In this document: positions 4,244-27,406 of the stretch, one piece after another
How the letters are laid out: each line of letters begins with the position of its first letter
How positions within the stretch are numbered: position 1 is the stretch's first letter
DNA from: Collimonas humicola
GTDB lineage: Bacteria > Pseudomonadota > Gammaproteobacteria > Burkholderiales > Burkholderiaceae_D
Direction of reading: 5' to 3'
Assembly (NCBI RefSeq): GCF_018304945.1
Contig: NZ_JAGQEE010000008.1
Location: 124,001 to 188,000 of the forward strand
Length of the DNA stretch: 64,000 nucleotides
Position numbers and translations under genes: made by a program
The notes under the pieces: model-generated
What the model saw: the letters and a program-made list of their open reading frames with translations, nothing else
What the model was told of the DNA's origin: nothing
The model's database searches: none

Positions 4244-4565
4244 TCATCATGATCACGCAGCACATGCACACGAACATCCACCTATGCGTAGTTTTCAAAT
4301 TCGACAGATAATTCGAGGTGTCCAACATAAAATCAATGTTCGTAGTCATTTCAATACGCTCCACCACCGCTGCCGATAATGCCGATAGGGTTTTCGTACT
4401 TTCCAATTCCATCACGACCATCCCGTTTATTCACTCGTAAGTCTTCCCAGCACAGCGTTGCCATCGGGTTTTGTCTCTTTGGTATTTTTATCTGGCCAAG
4501 AAACAGAGCCCTATTTGGAGCAGATTCACAGCTTACAATCCACTTTGTTTTCTTGTCGCAAGCAA
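4244..4565. other. Non-coding stretch upstream of left RHS array
   Basis: No convincing gene was seen; short ORFs here lack domains and ribosome binding sites. By position it replaces the deleted body of the first RHS gene of the left array. Confidence 0.5.
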
Positions 4566-5855: not shown

Positions 5856-5908
5856 TCCGATTTATTTGTCTTTCCCTTCAGTGCAGCCCTTTCCATCACG
5901 AGCTTTCT

Positions 5909-10784: not shown

Positions 10785-11320
10785 AGCGACGTCACCTGCT
10801 CATGGTAGCCGGACTGATCGGCTCCGGCTGCCTGGTCGTCTTTGGCGACAAGACGCCAGCGACCTCGATTGCCGAGCCGGTGGCGCGGCCGGTGCCGGCA
10901 CGCTCTGCCGTTGTAGCCACAACTGAGGAGGCAACGGATAAATCCGATAAGGATAGCCAGCGCACGATACTCGCGCTGGTGCCACGCAGCGTGCTGCTGG
11001 ATCGCGCCGACATCGCGGCAGACAACACCCTGTTTGGCAACCAGACCTGGACGCCACCGCCTCCGGTAGTAGCGCCCGTCAAACCGCCTCCGCCGCCACC
11101 GCCCATGGCGCCGGCATTGCCGTTCACCTATATCGGCAAAAAGCTGGAAGGCAACCATTGGGAAATCTACCTGGCGCAGGGTGAACAAACCGTGATTGCC
11201 CGCGAAAAAGAGATCATTGGCGGCCTATACCGCGTCGACGCGATCAAGCCCCCCGTGATATCACTGACCTATCTGCCATTGAAGCAGGTTCAAACACTTA
11301 CTCTTGAAGGATTCGACTGA
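10781..11320 (+). CDS. PilP/GspC-like periplasmic linker protein
   Basis: 179 residues. An N-terminal hydrophobic segment with a Cys (LIGSGCLVVFGD) could be a membrane anchor or lipidation site. A low-complexity linker with a proline run (PVKPPPPPPPMAP) leads to a small beta domain (PFTYIGKKLEGNHWEIYLA ... IIGGLYRVDAI) of the kind that in PilP or the GspC homology region contacts the secretin N-domains. Directly upstream of, and overlapping by one base, the secretin gene. Confidence 0.65.
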   Translation: MKRRHLLMVAGLIGSGCLVVFGDKTPATSIAEPVARPVPARSAVVATTEEATDKSDKDSQRTILALVPRSVLLDRADIAADNTLFGNQTWTPPPPVVAPVKPPPPPPPMAPALPFTYIGKKLEGNHWEIYLAQGEQTVIAREKEIIGGLYRVDAIKPPVISLTYLPLKQVQTLTLEGFD

Positions 11321-13713
11321 TGGCAGGTCGTCCGTTTTTTTTATTGTTTAGTTCTCCAGCATCGCTACGCGGTGTCGTGCCGGCACGGCTGACCCCGTTC
11401 GCTGCTGCGGCCTTGTGCCTGCTGACCGGTGTCTTGCTGTCTGGGTGTGCTGCCCAAATGAGCTATCGCGACGGCAAGGAATTCATTGCCCACGACAAGA
11501 TCGAGGAAGGCCTGGCCAAATTCCAGGAAGCCAGCACCCAGGATCCGCAGAATTTCGAGTATCGCGTCGCCTACCTGCAAACGCGCGAACGCGCCGTCTC
11601 CGGTTACTTGAGCCAGGCGGATCGCTTAGCGTCGGCCGGCAAGCGCGCCGATGCAGAAAAACTGTATCAGCGAGTACTAGCGCTGGACGCCAGTAGCGAG
11701 CGGGCACAGGATGGCCTGCGCAAGCTCTCGATGTCGGACCGCCATGCTGTGCTGCTGAAGGAAGCGCAGGCCGCCTGGGCGAAGAAAGACAGTGAGTCCG
11801 CGCAATTCAAGCTGCGCACCATCTTGAATGAAAATCCGGACGATGCCGGCGCCCAAGCGTTTCGCCGCATGATGTCGGAGGCGCTGGTCAATCCGCCGCT
11901 GGAGTCGACCTTATCGGCCGCGTATAAAAAGAAGATTTCCATTGAATTCAAGGACGCGGCCTTGAAACAGGTGTTCGAGGTGATTGCTCGTACATCGGGC
12001 TTGAATTTCCTGTTCGACAAGGATGTCAAAAGCGATCAAAAGACCTCAATCTACTTGAAGAACAGCACCATCGAATCGGCCGTGCACTTCATGCTGCTCA
12101 CCAACCAGCTGGAGCAGCAGGTGCTGGATGCCAATACGATCCTGATTTACCCAAACACCTCGGCAAAGCAGAAAGACTACCAGGAGATGGTAGTCAAAAC
12201 ATTCTTCCTGACCAATGCCGACGCCAAAACAGTCGCTGCGACCCTGAAAGCCATCCTCAAGACCAAAGATGTCGTCATCGACGAAAAGCTCAACATGCTG
12301 ATCATGCGCGACTCGCCCGAGGTTATCAAGCTCGCAGAAAAGCTGGTCGCCTTGCATGACGTAGCAGAACCGGAAGTCATGCTGGAAGTCGAGATCCTGG
12401 AAGTTACCCGTACGCGGCTGCAGCAGCTGGGGATTCAATGGCCCAGCAGTTTGACGCTGACCCCGCTGTCGCTGAGCGGCAATGCTTCCAATGCCCTGAC
12501 CATGCGCGATCTGGGGCATCAGAATTCCGGCACGGTCAGCGTCGGCAACCCCAACGCCGTGGTCAATGCCAACGTGACCGATTCGGACGCCAATCTGCTG
12601 GCCAATCCCCGCATCCGCACCCGCAACCACGAAAAAGCCAAGATCCTGATCGGCCAGCGTGTGCCGAATATTACGACGACCGCGACCTCGACCGGCTTTG
12701 TGTCCGAGTCGATCAACTATGTCGATGTCGGGCTGACCCTGAATGTCGAACCGACCATTTACCTGGACAACGATGTCGCCATCAAGGTCTCCATGGAGGT
12801 CAGCAACATCATCAGCCAGATCACCACCAAAGGGGGATCCACTGCCTATCAGATCGGTACCCGCACCGCCAGCACGGTCCTGAGCCTCAAGGACGGCGAA
12901 ACCCAGGTATTGGCGGGCTTGATCAATGATGAAGACCGGCGCGGCGGCAACAAGCTGCCAGGGATCGGGGAGATCCCGATTCTGGGACGCCTGTTCGGCA
13001 CCTCGTCCGACAACAAGCAAAAGACGGAAATCGTGCTGTCGATCACGCCGCATCTGATTCGCAATATCCAGCGGCCGGATACCTCGCTGTCGGAATTCCG
13101 GTCGGGCACGGACACCAGCTTCCGGGTACGTCCGGAAGGCGGCGGTACGGCCCCGGCAGTAATCAGCGGCCCGGCGGCAGGCGATGCAACGAATGGCATG
13201 CCAGCAGCAGGAGTCAGCGGCTTGCCTGCGGTGCCGCAGATCCCCGGCAGCACGCCAGCGGCGGCCGGCGCGGGTGGTGTTCCTGGCGCGGCATTGACTG
13301 GCTCCCAGTTGCAATGGCAAGGTCCGGCGCAGGTCAAGGCCGGCGGCTTGTTTGCGGTGCAGCTGATGATGCAGTCGGATCAGCCGGTCACCAGCTTGCC
13401 GATGGCGGTCAACTTTGATCCGCAGGTGCTGCAAGTGGTGAATATCACCGAAGGGGATTTTTTAAAACAAGGCGGCGCGCAAACCAGTTTTAATAGCAAG
13501 GTCGACAATGGCGGCAAGATCCTGATGACGGGCACGCGTTCCGGGGACGGCGGCTCCACCGCACTCGGCACGATTGCGACCATCAATTTTAAAGCGCTGA
13601 CGACTGCCGATGCCGCCCAGGTGCAGCTGCTGACCCTGGCCGCCGTGGGCGCCAAGGGAAGCCAGGTGAACGTGCCTCTACCAAAGGCGTATCAGGTGCA
13701 AGTCCAGCCATGA
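11320..13713 (+). CDS. gspD: GspD-like secretin lipoprotein with C-terminal cohesin-like domain
   Basis: 797 residues. A lipobox LLSGC places the lipidated Cys at residue 43. Residues ~55-190 look like TPR repeats ([21 protein letters not shown]). An N-domain ([20 protein letters not shown]) and a second one precede the secretin core with [22 protein letters not shown] and [15 protein letters not shown]. After a Gly/Pro/Ala linker, residues ~665-797 resemble a cohesin domain ([50 protein letters not shown]). It forms the outer-membrane channel; the extra domain may bind substrate or wall-associated partners (inference). Coupled to the next gene by ATGA. Confidence 0.92.
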
Positions 13714-14192
13714 TGGCCAGCCTGCGCGCCCGTGGTTTCACGCTGATCGAGTTATTGATCACGCTTGCCATCCTCGCGGTCCTGGCTGGTGTCGCCGTGC
13801 CGCTGGCGCAAGTGGCGATGCAGCGCCATCAGGAACAGGAGCTGCGCCGCGCCTTATGGGAAATCCGAGGTGGCATCGATGCCTACAAGCGCGCCAGCGA
13901 CGAAGGACGCATCCCCAAAGCGGTCGGCGCCAGTGGTTATCCGAGTACGCTGGCGATACTAGTAGAGGGACAGCCGGATCAACGCGATCCGAAGCGTTCC
14001 AAAATCTTCTTTCTGCGTCGGATTCCATCGGACCCGATGAATACGGACAACCCGGATGACCCGGCAGCGTCCTGGGGCAAGCGCAGTTACGCCAGCGAAG
14101 CCAATGATCCCAAAGAGGGGGACGATGTCTATGACGTCTATTCAACCTCGTCCAAGGTCGGCCTGAACGGCGTGCCCTACAGAAAATGGTGA
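13710..14192 (+). CDS. Pseudopilin (GspG/H-like)
   Basis: 160 residues. The type III signal [20 protein letters not shown] has Glu at +5 and a short basic leader, followed by a soluble domain ([49 protein letters not shown]). It is probably a pseudopilus component exported and assembled by the upstream machine. Overlaps the secretin gene by four bases. Confidence 0.85.
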
Positions 14193-14196
14193 TGCC

Positions 14197-14631
14197 GTGA
14201 TAGTTCACTTTCCATCGACATCGCACAAGAAGCTGGCCTCGTCATCAGGCAAAGCCACACTACGCCATCGCGGTTTCACGCTGATTGAATTATTGGTGGT
14301 CCTGGCGATTGTGGCCTTGCTGGCGACGATCGCCTTGCCGCGTTACTTTCAAAGCATCGATACGGCCAAAGAAGCCATCCTTCAAGAAAACCTGCGGCTC
14401 ACGCGCGATACCATCGACAAATTCTATGGCGACACCGGACGCTATCCGGACTCGCTCAATGAACTGGTGCAAAAGAAGTATTTACGCGCCCTGCCGCTGG
14501 ATCCGATCCTGGCCAGCAGCACCGCCTGGGTGATTGTGCCGCCGGACGACACTGCCAAGGGGAATGTCTACAGCATCAGAAGCAGCGCGCCGGGCAATAA
14601 TCGCGCTGGCAAACCGTTCTCTAGCTTGTAG
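14197..14631 (+). CDS. Pseudopilin (GspG-like)
   Basis: 144 residues starting with GTG at 14197, four bases after the preceding stop. A ~25-residue leader precedes the cleavage site [20 protein letters not shown] (Glu at +5). The globular part has the GspG-like RYPDSLNELVQKKYLRALPLDP element. It lacks the long Ca loop of the first GspG, so it is probably a minor or alternative pseudopilin. Confidence 0.85.
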   Translation: MIVHFPSTSHKKLASSSGKATLRHRGFTLIELLVVLAIVALLATIALPRYFQSIDTAKEAILQENLRLTRDTIDKFYGDTGRYPDSLNELVQKKYLRALPLDPILASSTAWVIVPPDDTAKGNVYSIRSSAPGNNRAGKPFSSL

Positions 14632-14634
14632 ATC

Positions 14635-15138
14635 ATGACAGCACTTCGCACCAGACACACACGAACGCCACGCTGCCGGCATGCTGGATTTACCTATCTG
14701 GGCGTGTTGATCATGGTAGCGATTCTGGGTATCGCCTCCGTGGCGTCCCTGCAAATCGGCTCGTTGCTGCAACGCCGTGCGGCCGAAGAAGAATTGCTGC
14801 GGATCGGCAGCGCATTTCAGAACGCCTTGATCGCGTACAGCAACGCGACCCCACCTGGACAGTCGCATGGTCCTCGCTCATTGGATGAGCTATTGAAGGA
14901 TCCGCGCTATCCGGGGATACGTCGGTATCTACGGCAATTGTATGTGGATCCATTGACCGGGAAAAGCGAATGGGGCGTCGTAGAATCCCCAGAGAATAGC
15001 AGCATTATTGGGGTGTTCAGCTTGTCTGAAGCCACCCCAATCAAGATCGCCAATTTTGAATCAGAGTTTGCCGATTTTACGGGGAAAACGTCGTATCGGG
15101 ATTGGCAGTTTATTGTGCCAGCAAATTTGCCTCACTAA
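14635..15138 (+). CDS. Atypical pseudopilin lacking Glu+5
   Basis: 167 residues. The prepilin-like segment HAGFTYLGVLIMVAILGI has the Gly before the cleavage site and Phe at +1 but Gly instead of Glu at +5. In T2SS this is typical of the tip pseudopilin GspK, although GspK is usually twice as long. The rest (RRAAEEELLRIGSAFQNAL, PRYPGIRRYLRQLYVDPLTG) resembles minor pseudopilins. Last gene of the operon; no terminator-like hairpin was obvious downstream. Confidence 0.8.
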   Translation: MTALRTRHTRTPRCRHAGFTYLGVLIMVAILGIASVASLQIGSLLQRRAAEEELLRIGSAFQNALIAYSNATPPGQSHGPRSLDELLKDPRYPGIRRYLRQLYVDPLTGKSEWGVVESPENSSIIGVFSLSEATPIKIANFESEFADFTGKTSYRDWQFIVPANLPH

Positions 15139-15380: not shown

Positions 15381-15818
15381 TTACCTAGAAGTTAGCAATA
15401 CATCATATTCGTCGAGCGCTTCTCTAAGTTCATCTATTACATCGCGTCCATTTGCACCATCTATGCGAAGAATACTAATTAGCTCTTCATATAAAATTAG
15501 AGCTTCCTTTTTTTCTCCGCGATCTTTCAAGTGATCGGCAAGATCTTTTAGCGCTAAAGTATTTTTCGAATCTATTGAGAGAATTTTTTCGTAGCACGCT
15601 CTTGCCAAACTTAATTGAATATTACTTTGTGTTGTTGGGATTTCGTCAAATTCTGCCGAAATCCACAATTCAATAGTATTACCCTTTAATCTCAGAGCAT
15701 CTATGTCGTCAGGAAACTGATTTAAAATTAAGTCAACAATTCTCAGCGCCGCTTCATAGTCACCAGACAGCGCTGCCATTTTCGCTTCTTCAAGCTTACT
15801 AATGCGGTCAAATTCCAT
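15381..15818 (-). CDS. Small TPR protein, candidate immunity gene of the RHS toxin
   Basis: 145 residues, soluble, acidic, without a signal peptide. Helical TPR-type repeats are visible: ALSGDYEAALRIVDLIL, LARACYEKILSIDSKN and DRGEKKEALILYEEL. The DNA is clearly more AT-rich than the secretion operon. It starts directly after the stop of the RHS core gene (ATG at 15818, stop ending at 15819), the classic place for a cognate immunity gene. The immunity role is inferred from position only; TPR proteins have many other roles. Confidence 0.75.
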   Translation of the reverse strand: MEFDRISKLEEAKMAALSGDYEAALRIVDLILNQFPDDIDALRLKGNTIELWISAEFDEIPTTQSNIQLSLARACYEKILSIDSKNTLALKDLADHLKDRGEKKEALILYEELISILRIDGANGRDVIDELREALDEYDVLLTSR

Positions 15819-18131
15819 TTAGAATGACCCCGCATTTGGATCAATTATTTCTCCGCCAAGGTCTTCGAACGCCTTACATGCCATCATATCCCCCGCCAGA
15901 CATTGGACTCTTACGACTGCCATGGTAACTTCTTCAAGAAATGGTGGGCAAAAAGATTTAGTAAAGCCCCGCTTGGCCACTTTAATCCAACCTTTTAGAA
16001 ATCTCTTCCGTACTGGCGATGCGCTCGGATCCTTGAGAATATCTTCAGCACGTTGGACGGCTGCGGATACTTCAGCTTTTGTACTATTTTTCGTAATTCC
16101 CGCTACCGCGGAATCACTACCGCCAATACTAGATTGGCCCTGAACTTTACTATTACCAGATTGATCAAAATACTTCACAGGATTTCCATCAACATAGCTA
16201 TATGTATTCATACCCCCATTTAATCCAATCGGATCCGACTGAACATACCGTCCCAACTGTGGATCGTAATCGCGATTGATATTGTAGAAGTTGTTGGTCT
16301 CTTTATCATACAACTGCCCCGGAAAGCGTTGGTTGTAGGTGAAAGTTCCTAGGCTGCTCGGGTTCTGATCTGGGGGTTGTAGTCCAAACGGATCCGCGTT
16401 GTCCCAGCGCCAAACCATCTGATTGTCGGTTGCCTGCGTAATCACCCGTGGCGTATTGATGTGGTCCGCATAGACATAATAGATGTTGGTTGCGGTGACT
16501 TGGCTTGTTCCTGTTCCCGTGGTCGTTTGTTTCAGTACTGCGACAGGCAAGTCGCCCAAATACACCGTCTCCTCAATTGCCTGCTGATTAGAATCGTACT
16601 CGCCAATCAGATGACTTTGCTCGTCATATATGTAGCTATTGCTGCCAGTTGGAATAATGGAATTTTGTCCGCTTTTTTGAACCCGCTGATCTATACCGTT
16701 GTGTGTGTAATTGATTGTAATACCGGCAGCTGAGGCAGTCACCATCCGGCCGCGATCATTATAGGTATAGCTAATGGTGCCGTCGTTGGTCAGATTGCCC
16801 ACCGCATCGTAGGTGTTGCTCTTCGCCGGTGTCGGCCCCGTCGTGGCCGTCAGCTGATTGCTGTTCGCAGCAATCGTGTTGGTGTAGCTGCCAGCACCGA
16901 AGGTGGCCTGGGTACGATTGCCGTTCTGGTCATATTGAAAGCTCTGGGTATTGGTACTGCTGCTGCCCGTGACGGAGTTAAGCCGGTCCAGGTTGTCATA
17001 GCCGTAGCTTTGGTTGAAGTTGGCCGGTGCGCTATTGCCAGTGCCCGTGCCGCTGTGGCTAGTCGCAGTGATCCGGCTGGCCGCATCGTAGCTGATCGTC
17101 CGGTTGGTGCCGTTGCTTAAAGCATTTCCCAGCGGGTAGCTGGTGACACGACCATCCAGGTCAATGCCCCTGGCATAGGTGTTCGTGCTGGTACTGCTGC
17201 TATTGCCCCAGGTCCAGGCATTCACAGGACCGAAGGCTTGATAGCCGATACCGGTCAATAAAGGGATGGTGCTGCCGGTATTGGTGCCACCACCGGTGGT
17301 ATTGGTCGGATTCAGGGTCAGACTATTGATCCGCCCTGCCGCGTCATAGCCGTAGTTGATCCGGTTGCCGCTGGGGTAAGTGGTGCTGATCAATTTACCG
17401 GTGGTAGTGCCGCTGCTGCCATAGGCGTAGCTGAGCGTGCTGCTGGCGCCAGTGCTGCTGAGCGTCTGCACCTTGGTCAGCAAGCGGCCGAAGCCGTCAT
17501 AGGCATAGGTGGTCTGACCGGAGCCGTCGATCATCCGGGTCAGGTGGCCGATAGCGTTCGGGGCGCCTGTTGATCCCCCATCGTATTCAAACTGGGTGGG
17601 AGTACCGCTGGCATAGCTGATCTGGGTCAGGCGGTTGAGGGCGTCGTAGCTATAGCTGGTGGTCTTGCCACGGGCATCGGTACGGGTCTTCAGGTTGCCG
17701 GCGGCATCATAGGTTTTACTGGTGCTGCCGGTATCGGGACTGGTGAGCGCGTTCTGGTTACCCAGGCCATCGACGGTATAGCTGGTTACCAGATTTCTCG
17801 GATCGGTGACGGTGCTGAGCTGGTCCTGGCCGTCATAGGTAAAACTGACGGTGGGGCTGGCGCCGCCTGCAGCCGGAACCGGTTGGACTTGCTGGATCAG
17901 GCGTCCCAGCGGATCGTAGCTTTGGGTGGTGATGTTCCCCAGGGGATCGGTGGTCTTGGTTCGATTGCCCATGGCATCGTATTCATAGCTGGTGGTCGTA
18001 TTCTGGACCGCTTGCGCCTGTGCTGCCGTGCCATTCACGCTACCCAGCAGCGGGCTGTAGGCCAGCGTGAACAGGACCGCACTGGCCAGAGTCTTGATAC
18101 TTGATTGTTTCCCCATGAAACGCCCTCTCAT
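15819..18131 (-). CDS. RHS core protein with variable C-terminal (toxin-like) tail
   Basis: 770 residues; starts with an ATGA overlap, with an alternative ATG at 18116 (MGKQSSIKT) just before a Sec signal peptide ending TAAQAQA. About twenty YD repeats follow. The RHS core is near residues 590-660: FPGQLYDKETNNFYN, YDPQLGRYVQSDPIG, LNGGMNTYSYVDGNPV and FDQSGN, where Asp is kept but Pro is replaced in the usual DPxG. The last ~110 residues are unrelated to RHS, AT-rich and of unknown fold (KRFLKGWIKVAKRGF, two Cys). By family analogy this is the polymorphic toxin tail, cleaved and held inside the shell. Only this gene of the array has core and tail. Confidence 0.9.
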   Translation of the reverse strand: MRGRFMGKQSSIKTLASAVLFTLAYSPLLGSVNGTAAQAQAVQNTTTSYEYDAMGNRTKTTDPLGNITTQSYDPLGRLIQQVQPVPAAGGASPTVSFTYDGQDQLSTVTDPRNLVTSYTVDGLGNQNALTSPDTGSTSKTYDAAGNLKTRTDARGKTTSYSYDALNRLTQISYASGTPTQFEYDGGSTGAPNAIGHLTRMIDGSGQTTYAYDGFGRLLTKVQTLSSTGASSTLSYAYGSSGTTTGKLISTTYPSGNRINYGYDAAGRINSLTLNPTNTTGGGTNTGSTIPLLTGIGYQAFGPVNAWTWGNSSSTSTNTYARGIDLDGRVTSYPLGNALSNGTNRTISYDAASRITATSHSGTGTGNSAPANFNQSYGYDNLDRLNSVTGSSSTNTQSFQYDQNGNRTQATFGAGSYTNTIAANSNQLTATTGPTPAKSNTYDAVGNLTNDGTISYTYNDRGRMVTASAAGITINYTHNGIDQRVQKSGQNSIIPTGSNSYIYDEQSHLIGEYDSNQQAIEETVYLGDLPVAVLKQTTTGTGTSQVTATNIYYVYADHINTPRVITQATDNQMVWRWDNADPFGLQPPDQNPSSLGTFTYNQRFPGQLYDKETNNFYNINRDYDPQLGRYVQSDPIGLNGGMNTYSYVDGNPVKYFDQSGNSKVQGQSSIGGSDSAVAGITKNSTKAEVSAAVQRAEDILKDPSASPVRKRFLKGWIKVAKRGFTKSFCPPFLEEVTMAVVRVQCLAGDMMACKAFEDLGGEIIDPNAGSF

Positions 18132-18976
18132 TGCACTGCTCCCGTGATTTGTTGTATACGATTTAAGGCATCTATTACACGACTGGTCTGACGCGCCAAG
18201 GCGCCGCTTGGGTCTTTGACTTGTTCACTGATCCGGTTACCCATGTTGTCCAGGGTATAGGCGATGCTGTTGCCGAGGCTGTCGGCGATGTTGGTCAGGC
18301 GATGGGCGGGATCGTAGGTGTAGCTGACCGTGGAGGTATTGGGCAGTGTGACCAGAGTCAACTGACCGACGCCGTCGTAGCCATAGGTGGTGGTCTCGAC
18401 CGTACCGCCAGACGTCACCGTCTTGCCGGTCAGCCAGCCGCGTGGACTGTAGGTCAAGGCAGTCGTCGCGCCATTGGCATCGGTAATCAGGCCTACCCGG
18501 CCGTTGGCGTCGTAGTTCGACAAGGTAGTGACTTGGCCGACGGCGTTGGTGATCGTGCTCAGGTTGCCGCTGCTGTCGTAGGTATAAATCGTCTTGTCCG
18601 CCACATCGGTTCTTGGACCTGTGGCGGTCAAGACTTGGCCGACCGTGTTGTAGGTGTAGCTCCAGGTGCGTGCGGTACCGACCAACGTTGGCGACAAGCC
18701 TTGCGCACCAGTCGCATCACTTGTGGCTTGCACCGTCTTGCTCAGCAGATTACCGGACGTATCGTAGGCGTAGGTCGTCAACAGTTTCGGCTCAGCGATC
18801 TGCAATGGCAAACTGTAGGTGGCATGCCAAGCCGTTGTGATCGTTCTGGCCTGCGACGTGCCGGATGCTTCCACACGGCTGGTTTCTAGGTTGCGCGTCA
18901 GGTCGTAGCTATACGTGGTGACGGCGCCGTTGAAATCGGTACGAGTTGCGACATTACCATTCGCGTCGTAAGTCTT
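18128..18976 (-). repeat. Conserved RHS 3' module, copy C
   Basis: Copy of the ~850 bp module shared by all non-terminal RHS genes. It includes the GGGAG Shine-Dalgarno and the ATGA junction to the core gene. Confidence 0.85.
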
Positions 18977-20302
18977 ATTCAAATTACTCACTCCGCCGTT
19001 CTGACCGCCAGGCTGACTTAGATTTGTAAGGTGATTACGATCTAATAAATTTGCAAAATCAAAATTTTGTTGTGTCCCGAGAGGATTAGTTATGATCGCA
19101 GAAACAATATTTTCGGTGCTATCCAACGTGTACACCACGCCATATTTTTCTACGCCGCCAGCATGCTCAGATGAAATGGCATAGCCATGTACATCGTAGC
19201 TCCAGGTCGCGAAGCGATTGTTATTTTCGTCGACAATTCCCGTCAATAGCACGCTTCTAGTAGAGCCGTTAGTATATGCAGGCTCGTTGTACAAATAACT
19301 GCGCTTTTTGCCGTCAGGATAAGTTATCGAAGACAGTAAATTATTATTGTAGCCATAGGTATACACATCGCCGGCCGGTGATGTCAGGGTCTGAATTCGA
19401 CTGTTTCCATCGTAGGTGAGATTTAGCTGACGACCAAACGCATCTGTTACCTTGATGAGTAAGCCCGCTTTGGGGGCAATATTGCTCGGTGTACTGGCGT
19501 CGCTATACGTTAATACGTGACTTTGCCCGTTACGATGTGTCACCATCAATAGTCTGCCTGCGGAATCGTAGGACTCAGTCGAATCGTCGTTTGCAACCGT
19601 ATATTTCCATCCGACTAGTCCGCCATTTACATCCTTAACTGAAACCAGTTTGTCCATCACATCGGCATCAGCGGTCCATGCGTTATTCAACAATAAAAAT
19701 GTGAATGCCTTTCCATCAGGACGTGTAATTACGGCTGTGGCAGGTTGAACCGTTACGTTCGCAAGGATAGAACGGTCATATTCGTGAGACCAATTGTAAT
19801 CACTTGGATAAAACCTATAAAAACTCCAGCTTGGCGTGCTGTTATAGGTACGTTGGAATAAAAGAGGAAATTTGCCTTCGCTCGTAATATCCGTTTCCAC
19901 TTGAACTTTATTGCCATTATGGCATGTAAGGGGATTCCCAAATTTTGCCTCACACGAGCCCGCAGGAGGGGCACCTGGTGTTTTAGGGGACAGCGTTGGT
20001 GCACTGCAGGAAGAAAATGGCTGCACCCAGGAATACACACTGCCGTCATGGAGATTGGTGACACTCTCAATGCACGAGGAACCGGAGGCTGGGATCGAAG
20101 AAGTAATCGCGCTGTAGGTGGAACTGCCCCCGACGCCAACTCTGGCCGCACACATTGCAGTAATCGTTGGAACACATGTGCCACCGGCAGTGTCATCCTT
20201 TATAAAACCGGCATGAGCAGCAATACTTGCGAATAACGTCACCGCGCAAATAGTCAAGCCGACACTTCTAGATTGCTCCTTTTGGTGCCGATAATAGTTC
20301 AA
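18128..20302 (-). CDS. RHS/YD-repeat exported protein, array member C
   Basis: 724 residues starting with TTG at 20302, which overlaps the upstream TGA (TTGA). A Sec signal peptide (LTICAVTLFASIAAHA) is followed by a unique Cys-containing N-terminal region, then CEAKFGNPLTCHNGNK and LFQRTYNS, the RHS entry module, and YD repeats. The last ~285 residues are the shared module ending QQITGAVQ. No core motif and no toxin tail. It ends where the core gene begins, so C plus the core gene would together form one full-length RHS shell. Confidence 0.9.
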   Translation of the reverse strand: MNYYRHQKEQSRSVGLTICAVTLFASIAAHAGFIKDDTAGGTCVPTITAMCAARVGVGGSSTYSAITSSIPASGSSCIESVTNLHDGSVYSWVQPFSSCSAPTLSPKTPGAPPAGSCEAKFGNPLTCHNGNKVQVETDITSEGKFPLLFQRTYNSTPSWSFYRFYPSDYNWSHEYDRSILANVTVQPATAVITRPDGKAFTFLLLNNAWTADADVMDKLVSVKDVNGGLVGWKYTVANDDSTESYDSAGRLLMVTHRNGQSHVLTYSDASTPSNIAPKAGLLIKVTDAFGRQLNLTYDGNSRIQTLTSPAGDVYTYGYNNNLLSSITYPDGKKRSYLYNEPAYTNGSTRSVLLTGIVDENNNRFATWSYDVHGYAISSEHAGGVEKYGVVYTLDSTENIVSAIITNPLGTQQNFDFANLLDRNHLTNLSQPGGQNGGVSNLNKTYDANGNVATRTDFNGAVTTYSYDLTRNLETSRVEASGTSQARTITTAWHATYSLPLQIAEPKLLTTYAYDTSGNLLSKTVQATSDATGAQGLSPTLVGTARTWSYTYNTVGQVLTATGPRTDVADKTIYTYDSSGNLSTITNAVGQVTTLSNYDANGRVGLITDANGATTALTYSPRGWLTGKTVTSGGTVETTTYGYDGVGQLTLVTLPNTSTVSYTYDPAHRLTNIADSLGNSIAYTLDNMGNRISEQVKDPSGALARQTSRVIDALNRIQQITGAVQ

Positions 20303-21147
20303 TGCATTTCTCCCGTGATTTGTTGTAAGCGATTCAAGGCATCTACTACGCGACTGGTCTGACGCGCCAAAGCACCACTTGGATCTTTGACTTGTTCACT
20401 GATCCGGTTGCCCATGTTGTCGAGGGTATAGGCGATGCTGTTGCCGAGGTTGTCAGCAATATTGGTCAGGCGATGGGCGGGGTCGTAGGTGTAGCTGACC
20501 GTGGACGTATTGGGTAGCGTGACCAGGGTCAACTGACCGACGCCGTCGTAGCCATAGGCGGTGGTTTCAACCGTACCGCCAGACGTCACCGTCTTGCCGG
20601 TCAGCCAGCCGCGTGGGCTGTAGGTCAGTGCCGTAGTCGCGCCATTGGCATCGGTGATCAGACCTACCCGGCCGTTGGCGTCGTAGTTCGATAAGGTCGT
20701 GACTTGACCGACGGCGTTGGTGATTGTGCTCAGGTTGCCGCTGCTGTCGTAGGTATAGATAGTCTTGTCCGCCACATCGGTTCTGGGACCGATTGCCGTC
20801 AATACTTGGCCGACCGTGTTGTAGGTGTAGCTCCAGGTGCGCGCAGTACCAACCAATGTGGGTGACAAACCTTGGGCACCGGTCGCATCGCTGGTCGCCT
20901 GCACCGTCTTACTGAGCAGGTTGCCGGACGTATCGTAAGCATAGGTCGTCAACAGCTTCGGTTCAGCGATCTGCAATGGCAAGCGATACATCGCGTGCCA
21001 GGCGGTCGTGATCGTCCTGGCTTGTGAAGTACCCGAGCCTTCCACGCGGCTGATTTCCAGATTTCGCGCCAGGTCGTAATTGTAGGTAGTGACATTGCCG
21101 TTGAAGTCGGTACTGGTGGCGACATTACCATTGGCATCGTAGGCAGT
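20299..21147 (-). repeat. Conserved RHS 3' module, copy D
   Basis: Copy of the shared ~850 bp module. The final codons differ slightly (GEMH instead of GAVQ), and the overlap with the next gene is TTGA. Confidence 0.85.
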
Positions 21148-22695
21148 CGAATTCGAAGCTGCACTGCAACCGGCACCACTAGGCTGACTTTGGCCAGTGC
21201 TTTTCACAACGCCGAGGACTGTTTGAAAATTATAGGTACGCGTGGTACCAAGCGGATCGGTGACGCTGCTTTGAGTAAAAAGGTTCGGATAACTCACTGC
21301 AAATTTCTGCACTCCCCCGGCGAGCTCTGTGGAAACTGCTTTGCCAGCGCTGTTGTACGTGATGATGGCATAGCGAGCTGAGTTTTCATCGGTTATCCCT
21401 GTCAATGCAACCTGCAAATTCGTGTTGGCAGTTTTATCTTGCTCGTTGTACCAGTAGGTGCGTTTCTTGCCATCGGGGTAGGTAACGGAAGTTAAGTTGT
21501 TGGCAGGCGAACTACCGGCCAGCATGGTAGAGCTAGCTTCATCATAGGCATAGCTATAAATGCCGCCGGCAGGATCGGTCATCTTGACCATGCGTGCGGC
21601 AGCATCGTAGGTGAAATTCAACTGCGCGCCAAAATGATCCGTAACACGGATGAGCAGGCCAGATTTTGGGGCAATATTAACTGGCGTACTGACATCGGAA
21701 TAAGTCCATGTCTGTACCTGCCCATCCCGTGCAGTGCTAGTCTGCAAACGACCCGTTAAGTCGTAAATTTCTGTCGAATCATTGTCTGCGTTATAGACCT
21801 TCCAACTAGTACCATCATCGGTTTTAGTAACGCGATCGTTTATATCGGCAGCGGGGCTGAGGTTGCTTGTCGTACCGAACGCGAGCATCCGGCCATTGCC
21901 GCGTTGGACAGCAAAATCGTTGGCTAGTCCGGTTGGCGCATACGCGAAGCAGTATGGTCTTCCCGTTTGATTACCAGTCCCTGGATAGCATCCCGAATAA
22001 ATAGAATTGGCATTTAGCACCTGTTGGGGAGCAGTAAAATCGACGCCAGCCACCTGGTAATTATTTACCCAAGTGTTTCGATCACTGCGGTAAGTACGAG
22101 AAAATCGCAAAGCGTTGGCACCACTGCCGGCATAGTCCGTTTCGGTAAGCTTTTCTATTCCTGTGGACGGATAGATTGGTTTCCCCAATGCAAGGCAACC
22201 CTGTGTTTCTGGTTTTTGTGTATTGGGATTGGGGGTGCAAGTTATCGTATAGTGGGGCGCGCCATCACCGTTAACTCCTGTATCTTTGCTGCATTCGTAG
22301 CTCGTGAGGACTGCATTCGCCTCATAGATAGTTGGGTCACCTGCAGTCACATAGTGCATATTGAAAGTTAGCGGCACGCCGTTGTACCATGCGCTTTGAT
22401 TGGGGGGAGCGTACAAATCCAAAACTGTTGTGCCAGGATATCTCGCCATAAAATTTGCTTTGTTTATTTCAAATGCTTCTTCCGGCGTATCGTATTTTCC
22501 TTGTTTGTCCGCATCGGTCCACCAAGCATTTATATAAAACATATGTGGATTTGTATCGCGAGCATGAACCACGGACATGCTGATAAGCGACATTAATCCG
22601 AGCAAAGTCAGTTTAATTTGGTGCGATTGAATCAATTTTTTTAAATTCCATTGGTCATTAGTTATCTCAATTTCATTTCCATCGGCTCTCCTCAC
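20299..22695 (-). CDS. RHS/YD-repeat exported protein, array member D
   Basis: 798 residues starting with GTG at 22695 (GTGA overlap with the upstream stop). An extended N-region precedes the signal-like segment LTLLGLMSLISMSVVHA. A unique exported region follows (HMFYINAWWTDADKQGKYD, with paired Cys), then GIEKLTETDYAG and RFSRTYRSD, and YD repeats. The last ~285 residues are the shared module, here ending QQITGEMH. No RHS core or tail is present. The unique first half differs from the other members far more than the second half does. Confidence 0.9.
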   Translation of the reverse strand: MRRADGNEIEITNDQWNLKKLIQSHQIKLTLLGLMSLISMSVVHARDTNPHMFYINAWWTDADKQGKYDTPEEAFEINKANFMARYPGTTVLDLYAPPNQSAWYNGVPLTFNMHYVTAGDPTIYEANAVLTSYECSKDTGVNGDGAPHYTITCTPNPNTQKPETQGCLALGKPIYPSTGIEKLTETDYAGSGANALRFSRTYRSDRNTWVNNYQVAGVDFTAPQQVLNANSIYSGCYPGTGNQTGRPYCFAYAPTGLANDFAVQRGNGRMLAFGTTSNLSPAADINDRVTKTDDGTSWKVYNADNDSTEIYDLTGRLQTSTARDGQVQTWTYSDVSTPVNIAPKSGLLIRVTDHFGAQLNFTYDAAARMVKMTDPAGGIYSYAYDEASSTMLAGSSPANNLTSVTYPDGKKRTYWYNEQDKTANTNLQVALTGITDENSARYAIITYNSAGKAVSTELAGGVQKFAVSYPNLFTQSSVTDPLGTTRTYNFQTVLGVVKSTGQSQPSGAGCSAASNSTAYDANGNVATSTDFNGNVTTYNYDLARNLEISRVEGSGTSQARTITTAWHAMYRLPLQIAEPKLLTTYAYDTSGNLLSKTVQATSDATGAQGLSPTLVGTARTWSYTYNTVGQVLTAIGPRTDVADKTIYTYDSSGNLSTITNAVGQVTTLSNYDANGRVGLITDANGATTALTYSPRGWLTGKTVTSGGTVETTAYGYDGVGQLTLVTLPNTSTVSYTYDPAHRLTNIADNLGNSIAYTLDNMGNRISEQVKDPSGALARQTSRVVDALNRLQQITGEMH

Positions 22696-23541
22696 TGCAC
22701 TGCTCCCGTGATTTGTTGTATGCGATTTAAGGCATCTACGACGCGACTGGTCTGACGCGCCAAGGCACCGCTTGGATCTTTGATTTGCTCACCGATCCGG
22801 TTACCCATGTTGTCCAGGGTATAGACAATGCTGTTGCCAAGGCTATCGGCGATGTTGGTCAGGCGGTGGGCTGGGTCGTAGGTGTAGCTGACCGTGGAGG
22901 TATTGGGCAGCGTGACCAGGATCAGCTGACCGACGCCGTCGTAACCATAGGTCGTGGCTTCTACCGTACCGCCAGACGTCGCTGTCTTGCCGGTCAGCCA
23001 GCCGCGTGGGCTGTAGATCAGTGCCGTGGTCGCGCCATTGGCATCGGTGATCAACCCCACCCGACCATTGGCGTCGTAGTTCGACAGGGTCGTGACTTGA
23101 CCAACGGCGTTGGTGATCGTGCTCAGGTTGCCGCTGCTGTCGTAGGTATAGATGGTCTTGTCTGCCACATCGGTTCTGGGACCGGTGGCGGTCAATACCT
23201 GCCCCACACTGTTGTAGGTGTAGCTCCAGATACGCGCTGTGCCAACCAATGTTGGCGACAAGCCTTGCGCACCAGTTACATCACTCGTGGCCTGCATCGT
23301 CTTGCTCAGCAAGTTGCCGGAGGTGTCGTAGGCATAGGTCGTCAACAGCTTCGGCTCAGCAATCTGCAATGGCAAACGATATGTAGTGTGCCACGTGCTC
23401 GTAATAGTTCTAGCTAGTGGCGTACCAGATCCTTCAACCCTGCTGGCTTCCAGGTTACGCGTCAAGTCGTAGCTATACGTAGTAGGAGTGCCATTGAAGT
23501 CAGTGCGCGATGCAACGTTACCGTTGATATCGTAGACAACT
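22692..23541 (-). repeat. Conserved RHS 3' module, copy E
   Basis: Copy of the shared ~850 bp module, with somewhat more substitutions at its 5' side than copies C and D. Confidence 0.85.
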
Positions 23542-25091
23542 TTGGATGAAGCCGCGGCACAGCCAGCTCCTCCAGGCTGCGATTGGCCGGTCGCTCTAAT
23601 GGAGCCCAAGACGCTAGTAAAGCTAGTGGTACGTGCAGTACCCAACGGATCAGTGATAGTAGTACTGCTACCATCGGAACTATAGGTCAACTGATATTGA
23701 TCGACGCCACCGGCGTGCTGCTCCGAATAGGCTTTACCCTGAGCATTATAAAAATAGCTGGCAAAGCGGTTACCATTCTCATCAACCATCCCTGTCAGTG
23801 CGTGCGGTTGATTAGTGCCGTCGGTGTATGCCTGCTCGTTGTATAAATAAACTCTGCTCTTGCCGTTAGGGTAGGCAATAGAAATCAAGTTGTTATTCGC
23901 ATCGTAGTTGTATTGATACAGTTCACCGGCTGGATCGATCATCGTAACAATACGATTTCTACGGTCATAGGTAAAATTCAACTGACGCCCAAACGTATCG
24001 GCCACGCGAAGCAGCAAACCAGCTTTGGGGGCAATGGTAGGCGGAGTGCTGCTATCGCTATACGTTAGGTTCTGGATAAGGCCCTCACGATCCTGAAGCG
24101 ATATCAGCCTGCCATTGGCATCATAGATTTCAGTTGAGTCGTTAATTGCAACTTGATATTTCCAACCGGTCAGGACCCCGTTCGTGTCAGTAAATTGAGT
24201 CAGCTTGTCCATGACATCCGCATCTTGTGCGATATAAACATTGCCGTTGACAGTAAAGCTATTGGCAGTACCGTTCGGACGGCCGATGACAACAACCGCA
24301 GTATTGTCGAGAGTGACGCCGACCTCGATAAAACGGTCATAGTCGTGACGCCACGCATTCCCCAGCGTGGTAACAGCGCTTCCGTTTTGACTATTATATT
24401 GGCGTCGAAAAAGCATATGGCTGGACGCAGCCGCTATGTAGTCGATGTCCGACCAATATTTGTTCCCAGTGCCGGCGTGAATCGGTTGTTTGGTGCCGAC
24501 TGGGATTGGGCATTGAGCCGGCGGGCCGTTGTCCTTACTACCTTGGCACTGACCTTGCAGGTGAATCTGTCCAGCAGGACAAGCGCACACTTGGGGATCG
24601 TTTGTGGCTTGACTCCCCTCGGGGCAAAAAGGAACCTGCTGCTGATTACCTAGCACACCCTCATCACCGTTATATTGACTTTTGCCAATCATTTGCCAAA
24701 CGGGATAGCTGGACAAAACTGAATACGCATAGTTGTAATGCCATATTTGTCCTGCTGCGCAATTTATCGCACTAACTCGCTTGCTTGCGTAATATGCTCC
24801 AGCAGTTTCCAGATCAGAATAGGATGTTTTTTCATTGTAGGCACCTGGATTACCACAATCGGAATACTCCAGCGTACCTACAAAATTGCTCTTAGCTGGA
24901 AAAGTACTTGTACGCGCATGCGCAACCGATATTACCGCCAGCAATAGGGCGCACAAAACGGCAATTTGATAAACGATTGAATATCCATCTTGTTTCACTT
25001 TACGATACACGGTGTCTTGAATTACAGATCGGTATACGCGATTATGTTTTTGGTGGATCTGCCCTACCGAATTCCTCAGATAACCACTCAT
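22692..25091 (-). CDS. RHS/YD-repeat exported protein, array member E
   Basis: 799 residues, ATG at 25091 overlapping the upstream TGA. A ~40-residue basic N-region precedes the signal segment IAVLCALLLAVISVAHA. The unique region contains CPEGSQATNDPQVCACPAG, a Cys-rich EGF-like stretch, then GTGNKYWSDIDY and LFRRQYNSQNG. YD repeats and the shared C-terminal module (QQITGAVQ) follow. It lacks the core and toxin tail and is coupled to member D by GTGA. Confidence 0.9.
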   Translation of the reverse strand: MSGYLRNSVGQIHQKHNRVYRSVIQDTVYRKVKQDGYSIVYQIAVLCALLLAVISVAHARTSTFPAKSNFVGTLEYSDCGNPGAYNEKTSYSDLETAGAYYASKRVSAINCAAGQIWHYNYAYSVLSSYPVWQMIGKSQYNGDEGVLGNQQQVPFCPEGSQATNDPQVCACPAGQIHLQGQCQGSKDNGPPAQCPIPVGTKQPIHAGTGNKYWSDIDYIAAASSHMLFRRQYNSQNGSAVTTLGNAWRHDYDRFIEVGVTLDNTAVVVIGRPNGTANSFTVNGNVYIAQDADVMDKLTQFTDTNGVLTGWKYQVAINDSTEIYDANGRLISLQDREGLIQNLTYSDSSTPPTIAPKAGLLLRVADTFGRQLNFTYDRRNRIVTMIDPAGELYQYNYDANNNLISIAYPNGKSRVYLYNEQAYTDGTNQPHALTGMVDENGNRFASYFYNAQGKAYSEQHAGGVDQYQLTYSSDGSSTTITDPLGTARTTSFTSVLGSIRATGQSQPGGAGCAAASSKVVYDINGNVASRTDFNGTPTTYSYDLTRNLEASRVEGSGTPLARTITSTWHTTYRLPLQIAEPKLLTTYAYDTSGNLLSKTMQATSDVTGAQGLSPTLVGTARIWSYTYNSVGQVLTATGPRTDVADKTIYTYDSSGNLSTITNAVGQVTTLSNYDANGRVGLITDANGATTALIYSPRGWLTGKTATSGGTVEATTYGYDGVGQLILVTLPNTSTVSYTYDPAHRLTNIADSLGNSIVYTLDNMGNRIGEQIKDPSGALARQTSRVVDALNRIQQITGAVQ

Positions 25092-25936
25092 AGACCATTT
25101 CCTGTGATTTGTTGCACGCGATTTAAAGCATCCACCACCCGACTGATTTGACGAGCTAAGGCGCCACTTGGATCCTTGACTTGCTCACTAACACGGTTAC
25201 CCATGTTGTCCAGGGTATAGGCGATGCTGTTGCCGAGGCTGTCGGCGATATTGGTCAGGCGATGGGCGGGGTCGTAGGTATAGCTGACCGTGGAGGTATT
25301 GGGCAGCGTGACCAGGATCAACTGGCCGACGCCGTCGTAGCCATAGGTGGTGGTTTCAACCGTACCGCCAGAGGTCACCGTCTTGCCGGTCGGCCAGCCG
25401 CGTGGACTATAGGTCAGTGCCGTAGTCGCGCCATTGGCATCGGTGATCAGTCCTACCCGGCCGTTGGCGTCGTAGTTCGACAGAGTCGTGACTTGACCGA
25501 CGGCGTTGGTGATTGTGCTCAGGTTGCTCGAGGGGTCGTAGGTATAGGTGGTCTTGTCGGCCACATCGGTCCTAGGGCCAGTGGCCGTCAATACCTGGCC
25601 GACCGTGTTGTAGGTGTAGCTCCAGGTGCGTGCTGTGCCAATCAATGTCGGCGACAAGCCTTGCGCACCACTCGCATCGCTAGTGGCTTGCACCGTCTTG
25701 CTGAGCAGATTGCCGGAGTTGTCGTAGGCGTAGGTCGTCAACAGCTTCGGTTCGGCGATCTGCAATGGCAAGCTGTAGGTAGCATGCCAAGCCGTCATGA
25801 TCGTGCGTGCTTGCGGCGTGCCGGACGCTTCCACGCGGCTGGTTTCTAGGTTCCGCGTCAGATCGTAGCTGTAGGTGGTAACGGTGCCGTTGAAACCGGT
25901 ACGCGTTGCGACATTGCCGTTGGCGTCATACGTGAC
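25088..25936 (-). repeat. Conserved RHS 3' module, copy F
   Basis: Copy of the shared ~850 bp module; the terminal codons (GNGL) and the AGGA Shine-Dalgarno differ from the GAVQ type. Confidence 0.85.
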
Positions 25937-27406
25937 GGCCGACGATGCAGCACCGCAACCGGCGCCGCCGGGTTGGCTTTGGCCGGTGCTCTTGATTGTG
26001 TTGAGGAAGGTTTGAAATGCATAAGTGCGAACCGTCCCCAGGGGATCGGTGACGGTGCTTTGGCTGCCAGGCTGCGTGTAGCCGATGCTGTATTTCTCGA
26101 CGCCGCCGGCATGCTCGGTCGAAATTCCTCGGCCACTGCTGTCGTAATTGAAGGTGGCAAAGCGCACATTGTTTTCGTCAACGATACCGGTCAGTGCAGT
26201 CGGCAAGTTTGCACCGGCCGTATAGGCCGGCTCGTTATAGACATAGGTACGGGTCTTGCCGTCCTGATAGGTCACGCTGACGAGATTGTTATTGCTGTCG
26301 TAGCTATAGCTGATCGTCTTGCCGGCCGGGTCCGTCATCTGACTCACTCGGCTACTGCTGTCGTAGGTGAAATTGAGCTGACGACCAAACTGATCGGTGA
26401 TGCGTAACAACAGTTCGGCTTGAGGCGCCATCGTCGTTGCATCCGAATAACTCAGCGTTTGTACCAAGCCTTCGCGGCTGGTAATACTAACCAATTTGCC
26501 ATTGGCATCATAATTTTCCAGCGATTGATCTGCGGCGATACGGTATTGCCAACCAGTGGTGTTACCTGCACTGTCGGCTTGGCGCGTCAGGCTATCGGTA
26601 ACATCAGCATCTGGGTGATATGCGCCACCCGTTAGGGTGAATGTCAGAATCTTGCCATCGTTGCGTTGGACGCCAGCATTGTTAGGGTAAGCACTGTTCG
26701 TCTGGACCATGCGCTCATAGTTGCTGCTCCAGCGCGCACCATAACGACCGTTACGTGTGCTATTGCCATTATAGGTGCGCTGCAATTGCACACCATTGCC
26801 TACGGCATTCAGATAGTCCGATTCCAGCTGCCGCTTGTTGCCGTTGCCATGGTTGATCGGGTTGCCATGTTCCAGTTTGCAAGCAAGCCCCGTATTTTCG
26901 TCGTTTGGCGCTGCACCAGGATTGTAATTACAACTGTTCTGATTCTCTGCTTCTGGCTTGCACGACGGATCGGCTGCAGGGGGAGCGCCGCAAGCAAACG
27001 TCACAGGATTAACAGCGTCAGGCAAATCACAACTGCCTGTGGGATCAGGAATACCTCTCTGGGCAATACCATTCATTGAATAGCACACACCATATTTTTG
27101 ACCAGCCATAGCTCCCCAGTAGCCTCCGTGACTTCCTGGAAAACTAGACCACCCCCAATAGGCACAATTTGCAGCGGGTGTTGGGGATTGATCGAATTTC
27201 CAACTGGATGCTTGTGCAAATTTCTGGGTACTGATCATCGTTAGCCCAATGATTAGGCTGACAAATATCCGGCGGAATAGATGCCTCAGCATGACAACAT
27301 TCTGACCAATGGGCGTGGAACTATTGTTCATTACTGCATTAACTGGTTTAGTCGTACTCAATCGCCTTGACAGCGTTTCAATACTTTTCACTTCCGTCAT
27401 TTCCAT
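25088..27406 (-). CDS. RHS/YD-repeat exported protein, first gene of the right array (F)
   Basis: 772 residues from the ATG at 27406; a second ATG at 27400 fits the AAAGGG Shine-Dalgarno better (6-base spacing). A long N-region leads to the signal segment FVSLIIGLTMISTQKFAQA. The unique region contains CKLEHGNPINHGNGNK and LQRTYNGN, the RHS entry module, then YD repeats and the shared module, here ending QQITGNGL. No core or tail. The candidate promoter is ~190 bases upstream. The same ITGNGL ending is kept in the pseudogene remnant at 4132. Confidence 0.9.
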   Translation of the reverse strand: MEMTEVKSIETLSRRLSTTKPVNAVMNNSSTPIGQNVVMLRHLFRRIFVSLIIGLTMISTQKFAQASSWKFDQSPTPAANCAYWGWSSFPGSHGGYWGAMAGQKYGVCYSMNGIAQRGIPDPTGSCDLPDAVNPVTFACGAPPAADPSCKPEAENQNSCNYNPGAAPNDENTGLACKLEHGNPINHGNGNKRQLESDYLNAVGNGVQLQRTYNGNSTRNGRYGARWSSNYERMVQTNSAYPNNAGVQRNDGKILTFTLTGGAYHPDADVTDSLTRQADSAGNTTGWQYRIAADQSLENYDANGKLVSITSREGLVQTLSYSDATTMAPQAELLLRITDQFGRQLNFTYDSSSRVSQMTDPAGKTISYSYDSNNNLVSVTYQDGKTRTYVYNEPAYTAGANLPTALTGIVDENNVRFATFNYDSSGRGISTEHAGGVEKYSIGYTQPGSQSTVTDPLGTVRTYAFQTFLNTIKSTGQSQPGGAGCGAASSAVTYDANGNVATRTGFNGTVTTYSYDLTRNLETSRVEASGTPQARTIMTAWHATYSLPLQIAEPKLLTTYAYDNSGNLLSKTVQATSDASGAQGLSPTLIGTARTWSYTYNTVGQVLTATGPRTDVADKTTYTYDPSSNLSTITNAVGQVTTLSNYDANGRVGLITDANGATTALTYSPRGWPTGKTVTSGGTVETTTYGYDGVGQLILVTLPNTSTVSYTYDPAHRLTNIADSLGNSIAYTLDNMGNRVSEQVKDPSGALARQISRVVDALNRVQQITGNGL

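What the first reader, a model, noticed from the sequence alone, without database searches (positions are those of the whole stretch)
15381..27406. RHS array with variable N-terminal halves and one shared core-toxin gene
Four exported RHS genes (25088, 22692, 20299, 18128) have different first halves but almost the same last ~285 residues, and none carries the RHS core or a toxin. A fifth gene supplies core and tail. Joining any N-half at its ITGAVQ end to the start of the core gene (QNTTTSYEYDAMGNRT) would give a continuous RHS shell. This looks like a split RHS with interchangeable N-terminal cassettes, which could be swapped by recombination in the ~850 bp shared module or assembled as separate chains. 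Known Rhs variability lies in C-terminal tips, so N-terminal variability is notable.
Basis: partly seen in the sequence, partly recalled or inferred. Interest (0 to 1): 0.78.

Follow-up and report, generated by a model that had tools for sequence, protein, structure and literature searches.

The report
Toxin shell built from separate chains
A bacterial RHS toxin, normally one long protein that wraps its own poison, is here encoded as separate exported pieces, four alternative front pieces followed by one poison-carrying back piece, and many relatives are cut at the same place.

Summary
Window 15381-27406 (- strand) is a coupled operon: four N-half genes, one core-plus-tip gene with its own signal-peptide-like start, and a small TPR gene, presumably immunity. 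The four heads are 34-43% identical (aa), their last ~299 codons 88-91%. It is not an artefact: the genome has six such loci with the same cut. Of 62 classified loci (own six included) 50 have this cut, 12 of them with a second constant cut before the RHS core domain; 12 are uncut. N and C genes overlap by 4 nt at 32 of 45 junctions; most chains start with a signal-peptide-like segment. Synonymous divergence drops inside the shared module. Core and N-module distances correlate far less in cut loci (r 0.50) than in uncut ones (0.96), as if the halves had been reassorted. Most likely the RHS shell is assembled from separately exported chains, as in TcB-TcC, whose chain boundary lies, by extrapolated profile alignment, within about 35 residues of this cut. 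The array would offer several N-chains to one toxin chain; that each N pairs with the core is untested. A type II-like secretion operon lies between the two RHS loci of the window. Six paper searches listed no such report.

The parts
25088..27406 (-). N1: RHS N-half, 772 aa, first gene of the array; ends ITGNGL
   Evidence: DUF6531 + RHS_repeat, no RHS core
22692..25091 (-). N2: RHS N-half, 799 aa; 4-nt overlap with N1
20299..22695 (-). N3: RHS N-half, 798 aa, GTG start; 4-nt overlap with N2; DUF6531 at 24.0 bits, cut-off 24.1
18128..20302 (-). N4: RHS N-half, 724 aa, TTG start; 4-nt overlap with N3 and with the core gene
15819..18131 (-). C: RHS core + tip gene, 770 aa
   Evidence: shared part 88-92% identical to four other cores of the genome and 85% to L056
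18015..18131 (-). signal-peptide-like start of the core gene (about residues 1-39); shell sequence begins at about residue 43
   Evidence: best 11-residue hydrophobicity 1.96; no trained predictor was available
16155..16391 (-). Rhs_assc_core domain (residues 581-659) of the core gene
   Evidence: TIGR03696, E 6.7e-19 (whole protein)
15822..16154 (-). variable C-terminal tip (residues 660-770), presumed toxin; no family match
   Evidence: no match to the tip; similarity to the other five cores stops at 659-678
15381..15818 (-). TPR-repeat protein, 145 aa, presumed immunity protein
   Evidence: TPR_19, TPR_14 over cut-off; position directly behind the tip
25088..25987 (-). shared 3' module of N1
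22692..23591 (-). shared 3' module of N2; synonymous divergence drops inside it at about residue 580
20299..21198 (-). shared 3' module of N3
18128..19027 (-). shared 3' module of N4
1598..3988 (-). first N gene (796 aa) of a second split RHS locus (L055)
1..1601 (-). 5' part of the second N gene of L055 (its 3' end and the core gene lie beyond the window start); its first 40 nt (1562-1601) are 77.5-82.5% identical to five core-gene starts
4144..4254 (-). remnant of the 3' end of a further N gene upstream of L055 N1, followed by the same ATGAG junction
4774..15138 (+). type II-like secretion operon between the two split RHS loci; candidate export machine
   Evidence: SLT, T2SSG, T2SSF, T2SSE, PilN, T2SSM_b (21.6 bits, cut-off 21.7), secretin + cohesin. 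The L-like (8795), P-like (10781) and three pseudopilin labels (13710-15138) are mine, from position and start sequence; one search gave no Pfam match for 8795, 10781 and 14635, and 13710 and 14197 were not in that call

Best explanation
This is a secreted RHS polymorphic toxin whose shell is made of two separately translated, separately exported chains. Shown from sequence: N and C genes are cut at one constant place; most chains, including those of this array, have a signal-peptide-like start; the genes are coupled by 4-nt overlaps; uncut homologues are colinear across the cut. Inferred: after Sec export the C-terminal YD repeats of an N-chain (the shared module) dock on the first YD repeats of the C-chain and close one shell around the tip, with the variable N head at one pole and RHS core and tip at the other, as in TcB-TcC. 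Here four N genes are coupled in series with one C gene, so several kinds of shell, same toxin but different heads, could be made at once. The array grows, shrinks and is homogenised by recombination in the shared module and at the ATGA junction. Passage of the outer membrane through the neighbouring type II-like system is a plausible further step, not shown.
For: Six split loci in the own genome, core part 85-92% identical, tips different. Of 62 classified loci (72 examined, 10 without a full core region dropped) 38 have one cut (N|C), 12 two cuts (N|C1|C2), 12 none. Of 20 further loci, chosen partly because their frames looked cut, 8 have the first cut with an N gene found. N-to-C spacing is -4 nt at 32 of 45 junctions and -4 to +3 at 39; four N-to-N junctions in the own genome are -4, the fifth N-to-N junction seen in that call (L066) is +298. 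Hydrophobic starts (11-residue KD mean >= 1.8) in 45 of 52 N, 36 of 38 one-cut C, 11 of 12 two-cut C1 and 10 of 10 third chains; random inner stretches of the same lengths reach it in 2.2, 4.4, 1.7 and 18.4%. Module dN/dS 0.10-0.12 within the array. Synonymous difference between array members is 0.59-0.97 through the heads and mostly 0.2-0.5 (0.12-0.65) from about residue 580; PHI 0.483 against a null of 0.551 (sd 0.011), reached by 0 of 1000 permutations, 8 modules, 148 informative sites. L055 N2 starts with 40 nt of core-gene start. C1 and N-module distances: r 0.96 in 10 uncut loci, 0.50 in 33 thinned cut ones (0.57 in all 41); 0 of 1981 spread-matched subsets of cut loci reach the uncut value. 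Cut site near the TcB/TcC boundary (extrapolated).
Against: No physical evidence of assembly. Both AlphaFold models are poor (mean pLDDT 51 and 50) and Foldseek matches to RHS shells are local only (TM-scores at most 0.21). Signal peptides were judged by a hydrophobicity window; 7 of 52 N genes fall below it (three of them at 1.66-1.76). L055's core gene has an in-frame TAG, so one own locus may be dead. In L141 no N gene lies directly upstream of the core; one lies behind it. Five of the 50 cut loci gave no N-to-C junction to count: L055 (broken core), L141, and L059, L144 and L153, which begin at a contig end. Arrays are rare, so array function may be incidental. The uncut set is small and seven of its ten loci come from one part of the tree, which may raise its correlation. 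The tip has no family match, so toxicity is presumed from architecture.
Confidence: 0.72

Rival explanations
1. Cassette store: only the N gene next to the core (N4) is used; N1-N3 are spare copies that replace it by recombination in the shared 3' module.
For: Shared modules homogenised by recombination; a core-like 40-nt start on L055 N2 and an N remnant upstream of L055 N1 show gain and loss at the junction.
Against: N1-N3 keep start codons, hydrophobic starts and 4-nt coupling, and their modules are as constrained as N4's (dN/dS 0.10-0.12); silent cassettes need none of these.
Confidence: 0.2
2. Neutral by-product: tandem duplication at a split locus produced redundant N genes with no combinatorial role; the split itself is neutral gene fission.
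For: Arrays are rare (5 of 58 cut loci); on the C1 tree the one-cut form needs 8 gains or losses, 7 of them forced by well-supported branches, so cutting or joining recurs.
Against: Recurrent cuts at two positions, most followed by a signal-peptide-like start, are not expected of neutral fission; the four heads have diverged to 34-43% identity while staying intact.
Confidence: 0.2
3. Sequencing or assembly error, or decay of a single-ORF RHS gene.
For: Single-ORF homologues exist (12 of 62); L055's core has a TAG.
Against: Same cut in six own loci and in many genomes, with a signal-peptide-like segment right after the stop; purifying selection on the modules.
Confidence: 0.01
4. Ribosomal frameshifting at the ATGA overlap fuses N and C into one chain.
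For: The 4-nt overlap puts C in the -1 frame of N.
Against: A frameshift product would carry the core's hydrophobic start in the middle of its shell, which the uncut homologues do not have; 13 of 45 junctions are not -4.
Confidence: 0.04

Closest known systems
TcB-TcC (BC) shell of ABC/Tc toxins
   Same: RHS shell built from two chains, the C-chain carrying RHS core and variable tip, one TcB serving several TcC (PMC11067744, passages; PMC7861908, passages); the cut falls near the same point of the shell (by extrapolation)
   Different: Here both chains have signal-peptide-like starts; N has no SpvB or other Tc-B Pfam match and the N profile found no Tc chain in the PDB by sequence; here the N side is multiplied and variable, in Tc the C side. 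SpvB in this genome occurs only in two ORFs of about 2.6 kaa elsewhere
Single-chain T6SS Rhs effectors (RhsA 7q97, RhsP 8h8a, Tse15, Tse5)
   Same: YD repeats, RHS core, variable tip; profile matches of N (541-668 to RhsP 455-575) and C (40-632 to 632-1151) follow each other along RhsP. For RhsA and Tse15 the best stretches do not place the seam as neatly
   Different: one chain; delivery by PAAR/VgrG is recalled; no PAAR or VgrG match in N1-N4
Sec/T2SS-class polymorphic toxins with RHS repeats
   Same: signal peptide + RHS + tip + immunity; the class is listed in PMC3482391 (passages)
   Different: a search of the held text (the first 300,000 characters) for 'split' found one place, about manuscripts; the passages that I saw describe no chain-split RHS toxin
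Bacterial teneurin-like proteins (TLP, 9ifo)
   Same: YD shell with variable N-terminal adhesion modules and polymorphic tips (PMC13018210, passages)
   Different: encoded as one chain

Membership tests
RHS polymorphic toxins | YD/RHS repeats | tested here: met
   PF05593 in all five proteins
RHS polymorphic toxins | conserved RHS-associated core followed by a variable tip | tested here: met
   TIGR03696 in C only; similarity among the own cores stops at residues 659-678
RHS polymorphic toxins | immunity gene directly downstream | tested here: inconclusive
   small TPR ORF directly behind C; no function test
RHS polymorphic toxins | toxic tip | not testable with these tools
   tip without Pfam or NCBIfam match
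Tc toxin BC subunits | two-chain RHS shell | tested here: inconclusive
   two genes and colinear uncut homologues; assembly not tested
Tc toxin BC subunits | SpvB and other TcB domains in the B chain | tested here: not met
   no such Pfam match in N1-N4 at E 0.01
Tc toxin BC subunits | TcA partner | not tested
   no TcA search was run
T6SS Rhs effectors | PAAR or VgrG adaptor at the N-terminus | tested here: not met
   no PAAR or VgrG match in N1-N4
Type II secretion substrates | Sec signal peptide and dependence on the T2SS | tested here: inconclusive
   signal-peptide-like starts and adjacency; dependence untested

The most novel reading that the evidence does not exclude
RHS shells are modular at the level of chains: two fixed cut sites allow four chain topologies (N-C1-C2, N|C, NC1|C2, N|C1|C2), with a signal-peptide-like start usually supplied at each cut, and in N-arrays a single toxin chain is dressed with several different N-chains at once, giving one cell a mixed population of toxin particles with the same cargo and different heads.
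Probability: 0.4. Interest if true: 0.85.

Novelty: new variant of a known kind. Interest (0 to 1): 0.7.

Why it matters
Rhs diversity is mostly discussed as swapping of tips. Here the shell itself is cut at constant places and its front half seems to reassort, which makes the head a testable evolutionary unit, suggests that TcB/TcC is one instance of a more general way to cut RHS shells, and gives natural two- and three-chain shells for studying how an RHS shell closes around its cargo.

Tried and rejected
Artefact or decay: rejected, the same cut recurs in six own loci and in many genomes. Recent gene conversion as the sole cause of module likeness: too simple, since module dS within the array is 0.58-0.78; the drop against saturated heads points to older and repeated exchange plus purifying selection.

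T2SS operon as a marker of split RHS: rejected. Secretin homologues (E <= 1e-160) occur in 195 of 392 family genomes against 46 of 392 with a core match at E <= 1e-80, uncut and remnant ones included. Only adjacency is notable: by hand, five RHS loci in 4 of 50 genomes lie within 10 kb of a secretin hit, against about 0.5 expected by rough arithmetic; two of the five are in the own genome and not independent, and a sixth (G322) is 12.6 kb away. Of 20 secretin clusters fetched (two of them, G135 and G321, chosen because their RHS was known) five have RHS ORFs in the stretch and one has fragments.

Structure: both AlphaFold models are too poor to place N and C in a shell; fold searches gave RHS shells but only locally.

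Not all matched places were fetched (for example G383:C30, G261:C1:4214977 and G030:C66 were left out), and the 20 order-level loci were picked from the rows with a leaning towards frames that looked cut, so 8 of 20 is no frequency. Of those 20, 8 have the first cut with N found, 7 (L209-L215) have N and C1 in one ORF without C2, 2 (L216 cut by the contig, L228) look uncut, 3 (L219, L222, L223) are unclear. The correlation test used 51 loci with one N gene and usable pieces: 10 uncut, 41 cut, thinned by hand to 33; its subsets overlap and are not independent. Large genome searches scored at most two candidates per genome, so locus counts are lower bounds.

Papers: six searches of an open-licence library without preprints; passages seen in five papers; the rest seen as listings.

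Full report
What is there. On the minus strand the operon reads N1 (27406-25088), N2 (25091-22692), N3 (22695-20299), N4 (20302-18128), C (18131-15819) and a TPR gene (15818-15381). Each of the four N genes overlaps the next gene by 4 nt. N1-N4 hold DUF6531 (N3 just below the cut-off) and RHS repeats; only C holds the RHS-associated core and a tip.

Likeness. The last ~240 codons of the N genes are 78-95% identical in DNA in 40-codon windows; windows before alignment column 600 are 24-70%, those with few aligned columns aside. Over the 10 N genes of this genome, heads are 24-43% identical in protein (two pairs 55 and 70%) and modules 85-93%, with L054 and L056 at 63-76%. Module dN/dS is 0.07-0.15 among the eight closer copies and 0.10-0.12 within the array; it reaches 0.27 in pairs with L054. 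Between array members synonymous difference is 0.59-0.97 through the heads and 0.12-0.65, mostly 0.2-0.5, after about residue 580 of N2; a PHI test on 148 informative sites of 8 modules is lower than all 1000 permutations. The pair L052 N / L057 N1 is itself a mosaic: its synonymous difference is lower in the head part at residues 380-530 (0.11-0.28) than before it (0.50-0.82). L055's second N gene opens with 40 nt at 77.5-82.5% identity to five core-gene starts, and a 3' remnant of another N gene lies at 4144-4254: arrays gain and lose members at the ATGA junction.

Six loci in one genome. The window's genome has six N/C loci, each with the 4-nt overlap; L052, L053, L054 and L056 have one N gene, L055 two and a remnant, L057 (this one) four. 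The shared core part is 85-92% identical to the window's and the tips differ. One core (L055, outside the window) has an in-frame TAG.

Relatives. 46 of 392 family genomes at E <= 1e-80 and 27 of 399 order genomes at E <= 1e-70 have a core match. Domain profiles classed 62 loci, own six included, as 38 one-cut, 12 two-cut and 12 uncut; 'cut' means that the core ORF lacks the N-module, and an N gene lay directly upstream in 45 of the 50, besides L055 whose core is broken. The second cut lies after about core residue 534; the third chain starts with a signal-peptide-like segment followed, in all six that I scanned, by one to ten bacterial Ig domains before the RHS core. Of 20 more loci, not drawn at random, 8 have the first cut with N found and 7 have N and C1 in one ORF without C2, five of these with a C2 chain (one cut by the contig end) starting within 12 nt. 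All four topologies thus exist. The best tree of the C1 region needs 9 changes of form; shuffled labels average 21.9 and none of 200 is as low. Named records with a cut core: Pseudoduganella rivuli, an Oxalobacteraceae MAG and, in Gammaproteobacteria, Methyloglobulus morosus. Arrays: five loci of 58 have more than one N gene (L055, L057, L062, L066, L227); in L062 the second N lies behind the core.

Chains and coupling. 45 N-to-C junctions: 32 at -4, 39 between -4 and +3, the others -40, +17, +79 (twice), +169, +295. Hydrophobic starts occur in 45/52 N, 36/38 one-cut C, 11/12 C1 and 10/10 third chains, against 2.2, 4.4, 1.7 and 18.4% of random inner stretches of the same lengths; the control is weakest for the third chains. 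In many C chains QNTTT-YEYD-like sequence follows directly on the presumed cleavage site, the point where N stops. C1-to-C2 spacing varies from -4 to +609.

Reassortment. In uncut loci C1 and N-module distances correlate at r 0.96 (n 10), in cut loci at 0.50 (n 33, thinned) or 0.57 (all 41); for the head region the values are 0.93 and 0.35; 0 of 1981 subsets of cut loci matched for spread reach the uncut values. Cutting therefore goes with looser linkage of the front half, with the caveat that seven of the ten uncut loci come from one part of the tree.

Comparison with known shells. A profile of 18 core chains maps the presumed mature start of C (residue 44, profile 36), by ungapped extrapolation, to residue 21 of TccC2 (profile 273 = 258), residue 35 of RHS2 (273 = 272) and position 1467 of the fused TcdB2-TccC3 chain (80 = 1511), where TccC3 would begin at 1475 if TcdB2 has the recalled length of 1474. 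N and C profiles follow each other along single-chain RhsP with a seam near its residue 630. It works like TcB-TcC but is not filed as a member: N has none of the TcB domains.

Export. Window 4774-15138 is a type II-like secretion operon with a cohesin-bearing secretin, flanked by the two split RHS loci. A like operon lies head to head with two-cut RHS loci in two other genera and beside a one-cut locus in another family. It is common without them, so this is a suggestion about export, consistent with the Sec/T2SS class of Zhang et al. 2012 (PMC3482391, passages).

What is not shown. Assembly, secretion, toxicity and pairing of each N with C are untested; structure prediction gave no usable shells. 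Novelty: none of six paper searches listed a report of an RHS toxin outside Tc cut into exported chains, but the library lacks preprints and most subscription journals.

Noticed in passing
L172, L173, L174, L175, L177, L180 (third chains) and L181: Two-cut RHS loci: the third chain carries an Ig-domain (Big_7) array of variable length before the RHS core and tip; in L181 a Golvesin_C domain sits between C1 and C2 in one chain.
   Followed up: partly
L209, L210, L212, L213, L215: Loci in which N and C1 are one ORF but RHS core and tip form a separate chain: the second cut without the first.
   Followed up: partly
window 4774-15138; L189, L191, L196, L199, L200, L202: Beside or near the type II-like operon in these six stretches lies a large gene of 910-2443 aa with Ig-like, CarboxypepD_reg, FG-GAP, TIG/PPC or similar domains, two of them with an RHS repeat: possible other cargo.
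   Followed up: partly
window 32746-32812 (-): Rfam match to Betaproteobacteria_toxic_sRNA (RF02278, 54.7 bits, gathering score 50).
   Followed up: no
G000:C11:926409-927335 and C11:781082-782002 (L229, L230): Two open frames of 2634 and 2639 aa with an SpvB domain and RHS-core matches further on: they look like single-chain Tc-type BC proteins elsewhere in the same genome.
   Followed up: no
L141: A cut core gene with no N gene directly upstream and an N gene behind it.
   Followed up: no
L062, L227, L066: Other loci with more than one N gene, one of them with the second N behind the core and a small downstream gene (L062).
   Followed up: partly
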